Assembly (NCBI GenBank): GCA_021803215.1 | Contig: JAJZLV010000106.1 | Coordinates: forward strand, 4,443 to 40,198 | Source: Actinomycetes bacterium | GTDB taxonomy: Bacteria; Actinomycetota; Acidimicrobiia; Acidimicrobiales; Bog-793 | DNA: 35,756 bases | Direction of reading: 5' to 3' | Shown: positions 24,165 to 26,486 of the stretch, one piece after another | How the letters are laid out: every line of letters starts with the position of its first letter | How positions within the stretch are numbered: the first letter of the stretch is position 1 | Notes under the pieces: generated by a model | Seen by the model: only the letters and a program-made list of their open reading frames with translations | What the model was told of the DNA's origin: nothing | Databases searched by the model: none | Translations under genes and position numbers: made by a program

Positions 24165-25730
24165 GTGGAGCCTGAACAGAACGACAGGCAGCTGCGAGCG
24201 GGGCAGCTGCTGGCCGGCAGGTACCGAATCGAGGAGCTGATCGGGCAGGGTGGCATGGCCGAGGTCTACAGAGGACGCGACGAACGCCTCGCCCGTCCAG
24301 TCGCCCTCAAGGTGCTGCGTCCCCGCTTCGCCCACGACCCGGAACTGCGCCAGCGCTTCGAGGAGGAGGCCAAAGCGGCAGCCCACGTCTCGAGCCCCCG
24401 AGTTGTGGCCGTCTACGACGCCGGCGAGGACGACTCGAAGTCGTTCATAGTGATGGAGCTCGTTGCCGGCGAGACTCTCCACGAGATCATCTCGCGCGGC
24501 CCGCTCTCGTCGGCGGCCGCCCGCTCGATCGGAGCCCAGGTGCTGGCCGCTTTGTCGGCGGCTCACGCGAAGGGCGTACTTCATCGCGACATAAAGCCCG
24601 CCAACATCCTCATCACCTCGGAAGGGGCAGTGAAGGTAGCTGACTTCGGGATAGCGAAGGCGATCCACCCCTCGCCCGGCTCGGAGCAGCACACGATGGA
24701 CGTGATACTCGGAACTCCCTCCTACCTCGCTCCAGAGCGCGCCCAGGGCTTGCCTGCCACGGTGGCCTCCGACCTCTGGTCCGTGGGCGTCCTCCTTTAC
24801 GAGTCGCTCACCGGTGCGAAGCCCTTCCAGGGCGAGAACGCGGTCGCGGTCTCGCTGGCAGCCAGCCAGGGCCGCTATCTACCCCTCACCGAGCTGCGCC
24901 CCGACCTCGACCCGAACCTGGCCGCGGTCGTCTCCCGGGCCCTCTCGCCCGTTCCTGCCGACAGGTTCGCCTCGGCCGACGAGATGGAACGAGCGCTCGG
25001 TCCAGCACCTCCCGGCGCGGCCGCTGCTGTCCTGCTCGACGACACCGCAGCCGCCGCGAGCGCGACGGGTCCGACCACCGTGAACCAAGGGCGCTCTGGC
25101 GAGGCCACCCCGCTCCTCGCACCGATGGGCGGCGCTATAGCCGCTCCACTCGTCGACGAGGCCCTCGTCGGCGGGCCAGTGGCTGAGTCGCCACTCGATC
25201 CGGCCAGGGTCGGCGCCGTAACGGCCGGGCACGAAAGCAGCCGCACAGGCACCGCGGTGCTGGCTGGCGCCGCTCTGGCTCTCGTTCTCAGCGGCCTCGC
25301 CGTCGCTCTCCTCGCCTCGCCGAGAGGCTCTCACTCCAAGCCTGCCTCGGGCAGAGTCGGTGGCGCGCCGACGACCACGAACCCCACCGAAGGCCCGTCA
25401 CAGCAGCCACCAGGCGATCGCCGGTGCCGCGACGACCACGACGACCGCACCGAAGGCCCGTCACACCCCGGCCAGCACCACGACGACGACCACGACCAAA
25501 CCGTCGGCCCCTCCCACAACCACGACATCGACAACATCCACCACGACATCGACAACATCCACCACCACGACATCGACAACATCCACCACGACATCGACGA
25601 CGACCACGACGACCACCACTGCTCCGAAGGCGGCGGCCAAAAGCTCGTAGCTAGGCGGCGAACCCTCCGAGGCAGGTCGTCTCCCAAACAGCTCAAGTGG
25701 CCGACCGCTTTCGACGATAACTACAGATGA
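24165..25730 (+). CDS. membrane Ser/Thr protein kinase (PknB type) with frameshifted extracellular tail
   Basis: Hanks-type kinase. Residues about 20-278 hold the kinase domain: Gly-loop GQGGMAEVYRG (27-37), Lys49 in VALKVL, HRDIKPANIL (140-149) with Asp142, DFG (160-162), GTPSYLAPER (183-192) and SDLWSVGVLLYE. A linker leads to one membrane segment at about 363-385, so the tail is outside; no PASTA repeats are seen. Read straight through, the tail becomes Asp/His-rich and ends at 25730. In the +1 frame it would be Thr-rich (TTTTTAPKA, TSTTSTTT) and end at TAG 25648-25650, as actinobacterial kinase tails usually look. The two forms diverge at a 2-base lesion near 25381-25389. GTG at 24165 is chosen because homology begins just after it; the Shine-Dalgarno is weak. 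Confidence 0.88.
   Translation: MEPEQNDRQLRAGQLLAGRYRIEELIGQGGMAEVYRGRDERLARPVALKVLRPRFAHDPELRQRFEEEAKAAAHVSSPRVVAVYDAGEDDSKSFIVMELVAGETLHEIISRGPLSSAAARSIGAQVLAALSAAHAKGVLHRDIKPANILITSEGAVKVADFGIAKAIHPSPGSEQHTMDVILGTPSYLAPERAQGLPATVASDLWSVGVLLYESLTGAKPFQGENAVAVSLAASQGRYLPLTELRPDLDPNLAAVVSRALSPVPADRFASADEMERALGPAPPGAAAAVLLDDTAAAASATGPTTVNQGRSGEATPLLAPMGGAIAAPLVDEALVGGPVAESPLDPARVGAVTAGHESSRTGTAVLAGAALALVLSGLAVALLASPRGSHSKPASGRVGGAPTTTNPTEGPSQQPPGDRRCRDDHDDRTEGPSHPGQHHDDDHDQTVGPSHNHDIDNIHHDIDNIHHHDIDNIHHDIDDDHDDHHCSEGGGQKLVARRRTLRGRSSPKQLKWPTAFDDNYR
25386..25465 (+). repeat. two direct copies of a 17-bp repeat inside the kinase tail
   Basis: ACCGAAGGCCCGTCACA occurs at 25386-25402 and 25449-25465. 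Both are preceded by GACGACCACGA, but the distance between these elements is 5 bases in the first copy and 7 in the second. This difference identifies the likely frameshift. Confidence 0.8.
25521..25601 (+). repeat. 18-bp tandem-like repeats encoding the low-complexity kinase tail
   Basis: CACGACATCGACAACATC occurs exactly at 25521-25538, 25542-25559 and 25566-25583, with a partial fourth copy at 25587-25601. In the +1 frame it encodes Thr/Ser only; in the kinase frame it gives HDIDNI. Such repeats are prone to slippage. Confidence 0.85.
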
Positions 25731-26486
25731 CGGATGGGGGCAGTCGAACGACCCGAGGTCCTGCAGCAGACCTCGGGTCGCTCGCTGCCTACCGTCACCG
25801 GGAGCGCGGGCCCGCTCCTCAGCGGTTGCATGCCACTCGACCTCGCCGGCTGCCTCAGCCGTGCCGCCCTCCTCGCCTTCGAAGTCCTCGGCTTCTCCCT
25901 GCTCGACGGGGCCCCGCTGGCGCGATGGTTCGGTCCGCTCGTACATGAACGCCATCGAGCACCACGACCTGCCACCTGCGGGACCTTTGACCCAGCCCCG
26001 GCCGCCAGCGTGATCTCGGCCCTCTTGGCCTGCTGGGCTCTCGGGTAGCCCGGGGCCTTCGGAGAGCCCTGACATGCGGGGGCGACAGCACAGGCTCGGG
26101 GTCGTGGTCGTCCCGCCCAGCGCTCGGCTTGAGAGCAGGGCCGAGCGAGCCTCATGAGCATCTGCGGGGCAATCGGCAAGGCGGTTCTCGTTGCCACCGC
26201 AAGGCTGCGGCAACGGTGAGGGGTTGAGCATCCAGGCTGGCCACGGGCTCTCGAGGGCGCTGGCAGCCCGCGCTGTCCCCTCCGGGCTCCTCGGGTGGAT
26301 CACAAGTCAACAGGGCCGGCACGTCGACTTCTTCGCCGCCCGGGCCCGCCGGAGTGCCGGCGCAGCGGGCCCCGCGTGACCAACGGGTCAGATCCGGTCA
26401 CATGTCGCCAGAAGAGCCTCCTTTTCTGACCGCAGGCCTGCTCGGCGACCAGGCCGCGGATTGCCCACTTTCGGCCTGCTCGCCCC
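25731..26486. other. gene-poor interval after the kinase gene
   Basis: About 750 bp in which no frame shows a recognisable family or clear start signal. Open frames occur on both strands with Arg/Pro/Gly-rich, shadow-like composition. It contains two hairpins, at 25749-25780 and 26190-26214 (GTTGCC/GGCAAC arms). Confidence 0.55.
25749..25780. terminator. 12-bp perfect hairpin downstream of the kinase gene
   Basis: CGACCCGAGGTC and GACCTCGGGTCG pair perfectly around an 8-base loop, 19 bases after the TGA in the kinase frame and about 100 bases after the Thr-frame stop. No T-run follows, as is common for actinobacterial terminators. Confidence 0.5.

What the first reader, a model, noticed from the sequence alone, without database searches (positions are those of the whole stretch)
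25370..25730. Two-base lesion switches the extracellular kinase tail from Thr-rich to Asp/His-rich
The kinase frame yields a tail of HHDIDN repeats, while the +1 frame of the same DNA yields the Thr/Ser-rich tail usual in actinobacterial kinases. A 17-bp repeat occurs twice in the tail. In its first copy the gap to the preceding GACGACCACGA is 5 bases, in the second 7; restoring two bases near 25381-25389 joins the kinase to the Thr-rich frame ending at 25650. This may be an assembly error, a fixed mutation, or slippage-based phase variation of the surface part of a signalling kinase.
Basis: partly seen in the sequence, partly recalled or inferred. Interest (0 to 1): 0.6.

Follow-up and report, generated by a model that had tools for sequence, protein, structure and literature searches.

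The report
Frameshift in a Thr-rich kinase tail
The odd Asp/His-rich tail of this bacterial membrane kinase is an ordinary threonine-rich tail read out of frame after a one- or two-base indel, either a recent mutation or an assembly error, and not a new surface domain or a switch.

Summary
In the kinase frame (GTG 24165 to stop 25728-25730) the part beyond the membrane helix reads as HHDIDN-type repeats. The +1 frame of the same DNA reads as a Thr/Ser-rich tail ending at 25650. The 5-base versus 7-base gap is real.

All four orthologues with a readable full Thr-rich tail, including the one from the same genus, carry it directly in the kinase frame (48-75% T+S, 5% D+H or less). None has an Asp/His tail. 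A codon model trained on other genes of this genome gains 48 log units from one +1 switch at 25380-25407; the same test gains nothing in those four orthologues. Six other Thr-rich genes of this genome are intact, and their off-frame readings give the same Asp/His pattern. So the Asp/His tail is a shadow frame.

Phase variation is unlikely: the longest run at the lesion is CCCC, and the 21-base tail repeat cannot change frame. Programmed frameshifting is not conserved. A fixed mutation and an assembly indel cannot be told apart without reads. No other base-level frameshift was found in 15 neighbouring genes (18.7 kb).

Interest is low. A conserved WhiG/FliA-like promoter and hairpin RNA just downstream is the more promising lead.

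The parts
24165..25385 (+). Intact part of a membrane Ser/Thr protein kinase gene: Pkinase domain, proline/alanine-rich juxtamembrane stretch, membrane helix, and start of the outer tail (GTG start inferred)
   Evidence: Pfam PF00069 179 bits; start matches GTG starts of relatives
25248..25316 (+). Single predicted membrane helix GTAVLAGAALALVLSGLAVALLA (by eye)
   Evidence: sequence; aligned hydrophobic stretch in relatives
25357..25402 (+). First copy of duplicated tail unit, two bases shorter than the second
25418..25465 (+). Second copy of duplicated tail unit
25380..25407 (+). Interval that holds the frame switch (net +1 or -2); the duplicate comparison narrows it to 25381-25385
   Evidence: codon-model gain 48 log units, positions within 3 units; duplicate alignment
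25386..25650 (+). Thr/Ser-rich tail in the +1 frame, ending TAG 25648-25650: the ancestral reading
   Evidence: orthologues
25519..25613 (+). 21-base tandem repeat (4.4 copies, one 3-base insertion): TTTSTTS in the Thr frame, HDIDNIH in the kinase frame
25651..25730 (+). Extra stretch read only in the kinase frame; it runs across a conserved non-coding promoter-like element, so it is probably not genuine coding sequence

Best explanation
The gene encodes a membrane-anchored eukaryotic-type Ser/Thr kinase whose outer part is normally a low-complexity Thr/Ser-rich tail, as in its orthologues. In this assembly one small indel (net +1 or -2 bases) at about 25381-25385 moves translation out of the Thr frame. 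Because a run of ACN codons read one base off gives GAC/CAC/AAC/ATC codons and no stops, the result is a long open Asp/His-rich shadow tail instead of a truncation. Shown: the frame break, its place, the Thr-frame ancestry, and its absence in relatives. Inferred: if the indel is in the cell, it is a recent, probably tolerated mutation, since the kinase domain and membrane helix are untouched and tail sequence and length vary freely in relatives. If not, it is a base-level assembly error. I put these at about 55:45.
For: Four orthologues keep a Thr/Ser-rich tail in the kinase frame: G031, G025, G026 and, in the same genus, G001 (its two contigs overlap by 126 identical bases). T+S is 48-75% and D+H at most 5%, against 62% and 3% for the window's +1 frame and 12% and 31% for its kinase-frame tail. 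A codon model trained on other genes of this genome gains 48.1 log units from a single +1 switch at 25380-25407; a +2 switch gains nothing, and the same four orthologues gain nothing from any switch. In 25490-25620 the variable base falls on the third codon position of the Thr frame, which is the first of the kinase frame; the kinase-frame third position is C in 43 of 44. 0 of 48 Asp/His/Asn/Ile codons end in T, against 12.4% in neighbouring genes, P = 0.0017. Six other Thr-rich genes of this genome are read in the Thr frame and show the same Asp/His pattern only off frame. The internal duplicate places the indel at 25381-25385.
Against: No reads and no second genome of the same species could be examined, so existence in the cell is untested. 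The nearest orthologue kinase is about 70-77% identical in protein, and its tail cannot be aligned base by base. One orthologue (G028) has a short tail without Thr repeats, so the Thr-rich tail is usual but not universal.
Confidence: 0.92

Rival explanations
1. The frameshift is fixed and the new Asp/His-rich tail is now a selected extracellular metal- or proton-responsive domain of the kinase.
For: The kinase frame stays open for about 115 codons past the shift. Named relatives are metagenome bins labelled DS4, YP2, TL1-5 and WH2; I guess, untested, that these are acidic metal-rich sites.
Against: Openness follows from the ACN repeat composition and is seen off frame in other Thr genes. Codon third positions show no sign of selection in this frame. 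The extra 3' part runs across a conserved non-coding element. No relative has it.
Confidence: 0.03
2. Slippage-based phase variation toggles the tail between the Thr and Asp/His frames.
For: Tandem repeats lie in the tail, and short duplicated units flank the switch.
Against: At the lesion the longest homopolymer is four C; the only dinucleotide run in the tail region is three units, and lies upstream at 25363. The 21-base unit and its 3-base insertion cannot change frame. All four relatives are in the Thr frame.
Confidence: 0.03
3. A programmed +1 ribosomal frameshift joins the kinase to the Thr-rich tail.
For: A CCC-A step lies in the kinase frame near 25383-25386, where proline tRNA can slip (general knowledge).
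Against: Orthologues need no shift. The kinase frame has no stop near the site to pause on. No conserved slippery site or signal was found.
Confidence: 0.02

Closest known systems
Actinobacterial membrane Ser/Thr protein kinases (Pkinase, PF00069) with low-complexity Thr/Ser/Pro-rich outer tails; here an orthologous group in one uncultured family
   Same: Cytosolic kinase domain, one membrane helix, Thr-rich outer tail in the orthologues
   Different: Only in the window is the tail read out of frame; no PASTA or other folded outer domain was matched in Pfam
Frameshifted genes (recent pseudogenisation or assembly indels)
   Same: A single small indel, the rest of the gene intact, relatives intact
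   Different: The off-frame reading of ACN repeats has no stops, so the gene is lengthened and not truncated
Contingency loci (slipped-strand phase variation)
   Same: Repeats present in a surface-exposed segment
   Different: No unstable tract whose unit is not a multiple of three at the switch

Membership tests
Membrane Ser/Thr protein kinase (PF00069) | Protein kinase domain above gathering score with HRD/DFG motifs | tested here: met
   179 bits against cut-off 31.7; HRDIKPAN and DFG present
Membrane Ser/Thr protein kinase (PF00069) | Single membrane helix after the kinase domain | tested here: met
   Hydrophobic stretch 25248-25316 aligned in relatives; judged by eye, no predictor run
PASTA kinase (PknB/PrkC/StkP type) | PASTA repeats in the outer part | tested here: not met
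   No PASTA match in Pfam at E 0.001
Frameshifted gene | Coding signal moves from one frame to another at one point | tested here: met
   Gain of 48 log units for one +1 switch, none in four orthologues
Frameshifted gene | Relatives have both parts in one frame | tested here: met
   Four of four orthologues with a readable full Thr-rich tail; G028 has a different, short tail
Frameshifted gene | Indel present in the living population, not only in the assembly | not testable with these tools
   No reads and no conspecific genome held
Slipped-strand contingency locus | Long simple repeat of unit not divisible by three at the switch point | tested here: not met
   Only CCCC at 25382; no dinucleotide run at the lesion
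Programmed +1 frameshifting | Conserved slippery site and conserved need for the shift in orthologues | tested here: not met
   Orthologues read through in one frame

The most novel reading that the evidence does not exclude
A fixed frameshift has turned a neutral Thr-rich surface tail into a 115-residue Asp/His-rich, potentially metal-binding outer domain of a signalling kinase in one step.
Probability: 0.03. Interest if true: 0.55.

Novelty: new member of a known kind. Interest (0 to 1): 0.14.

Why it matters
Mainly as a caution. Asp/His-rich 'metal-binding' repeat tails in high-GC genomes should be checked against the neighbouring frame, because Thr-rich ACN repeats read one base off give exactly that pattern with no stops, and gene callers will accept it. 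If the mutation is real it is a small example of a surface tail being replaced wholesale without loss of the kinase.

Tried and rejected
A Thr tail missing from the nearest relative: rejected. G001's kinase contig simply ends in the gene, with a terminal AGATCGG that looks like an adapter remnant, and contig C104 overlaps it by 126 identical bases and carries the full Thr-rich tail. Poor assembly in general: the tblastn census flagged several apparent further frameshifts against G001. The two strongest were examined: one is a 10-N scaffold gap just before the window's first base, the other lies upstream of a start codon. The remaining flags are weak matches or overlap another gene on the opposite strand, or flank a 320-base insertion, and were set aside by inspection. 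That leaves none in 15 genes, 18.7 kb. Thr tails as a hot spot for assembly indels: six other Thr-rich genes of this genome are intact. tRNA or known RNA at the lesion: none. No structure was predicted, since both tails are low complexity.

Full report
Observation. The kinase ORF is open to 25730 and its tail beyond the membrane helix is Asp/His-rich. The +1 frame of the same DNA is Thr/Ser-rich and ends at 25650. It lies in a duplicated unit, 25357-25402 and 25418-25465. The 5' halves are 61 bases apart and the 3' halves 63. Reading the 5' half of copy 1 in the kinase frame and its 3' half in the +1 frame gives VGGAPTTT...PKARHSS, which parallels IAGAATTTTTAPKARHTP of copy 2 read in one frame. 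So the duplication itself places the indel at 25381-25385.

Relatives. The window lies in a 2.6-Mb, 148-contig assembly of an uncultured organism, whose close relatives are recorded as Actinomycetes metagenome bins. Searching the genus and family gave orthologues of this kinase in G001, G025, G026, G028 and G031. G025, G026 and G031 run straight from kinase to membrane helix to a Thr/Ser-rich tail in one frame (the G026 contig starts inside the kinase domain). The same-genus orthologue in G001 is split over two contigs that overlap by 126 identical bases. The second contig carries helix, Thr-rich tail and stop in one frame. G028 has a short Ala/Gly/Arg tail with no Thr repeat in any frame. No relative has an Asp/His tail. 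Tail compositions are T+S 0.48-0.75 and D+H 0.05 or less, against 0.62 and 0.03 for the window's +1 frame and 0.12 and 0.31 for its kinase-frame tail.

Coding statistics. A codon model with a globular and a linker state was trained on 15 neighbouring genes and on the Thr-rich parts of six other genes of this genome. It prefers a single switch to the +1 frame by 48.1 log units, with positions 25380-25407 within 3 units. A +2 switch gains nothing. The four orthologues gain nothing from any switch. In the tail (25490-25620) the base that varies freely (C15, G15, A12, T2) is the third position of the Thr frame and the first of the kinase frame; the kinase-frame third position is C in 43 of 44. Of 48 Asp/His/Asn/Ile codons in the kinase-frame tail none ends in T, though 12.4% do in neighbouring genes (P = 0.0017; repeat units are not independent, so this P is optimistic). 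The tail has therefore evolved as Thr/Ser coding. Its lack of decay in that frame says the shift is recent or not real.

Why Asp/His. Codons ACG, ACC, ACA and TCG read one base off in a repeat become GAC, CAC, AAC and ATC. The six other Thr-rich genes found in this genome show similar Asp/His patterns in an unused frame. No stops arise, so the gene looks longer, not broken, and runs on to 25730 through a conserved non-coding element.

Cause. Against G001, 15 neighbouring genes (18.7 kb) show no base-level frameshift in the window's contig, and six other Thr-rich genes are intact. The assembly is thus not generally error-prone, which leans slightly towards a real mutation. But relatives' assemblies are of very low nominal coverage (record titles), one of them breaks in this very gene, and no reads were available. 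I give 55:45 for mutation over artefact; this is a judgement, not a measurement. Phase variation is unlikely: the only run at the lesion is CCCC and the tail repeats come in multiples of three. Programmed frameshifting is not conserved. A selected Asp/His domain has no support.

Side lead. Just downstream (25692-25779) is a conserved element: CTCAAG-N17-CGATAA, then GGATGGGGGCAGTCGA and a long hairpin. It occurs in six genomes of the family, in five of them after this kinase and in G034 after the upstream ArfB-like gene (named by eye) with no kinase between. The hairpin has changes on both sides that keep pairing in 7 of 27 predicted pairs. The genome has a FliA/WhiG-class sigma factor (267.8 bits, cut-off 189.6) but no flagellin was found, and its only exact CTCAAG-N15-18-CCGATA site is upstream of a pilT-like gene (named by eye). 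In Rubrobacter, WhiG is proposed to drive type IV pilus genes from promoters of the flagellar consensus with -10 GCCGATAA (PMC8325347). The element therefore looks like a WhiG-type promoter followed by a structured RNA of unknown role. An order-wide model search, a sample of 148 genomes under strict filters, found no strong further match.

Noticed in passing
window 25692-25779 (+): Conserved CTCAAG-N17-CGATAA promoter-like boxes followed by GGATGGGGGCAGTCGA and a long hairpin with compensatory changes, 3' of the kinase in five genomes and without the kinase in G034: a possible WhiG/FliA-type promoter with a structured RNA that has no Rfam match.
   Followed up: partly
L156 (G000:C40:12573-13241) and L155 (G000:C105:2713-2739): The genome has a FliA/WhiG-class sigma factor but no flagellin was found, and the one exact CTCAAG-N15-18-CCGATA site lies upstream of a pilT-like gene, which suggests type IV pili under a WhiG-like sigma as proposed in Rubrobacter.
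   Followed up: partly
window 1 (G000:C32:4433-4442): The window begins directly after a 10-N scaffold gap inside a kynureninase-like gene (named by eye); the gap length does not keep the reading frame.
   Followed up: yes
L140 end (G001:C191:39346-39352): The relative's contig ends in AGATCGG, an apparent Illumina adapter remnant, within the same kinase gene; contig C104 continues it.
   Followed up: yes
L060 / L055 (G031:C133), downstream of the kinase: A 10-N gap is followed by a second copy of the tail's last bases (GTCGGCGGGGAGACCTGCCTAG), so that scaffold join duplicates the end of the Thr-rich tail.
   Followed up: no
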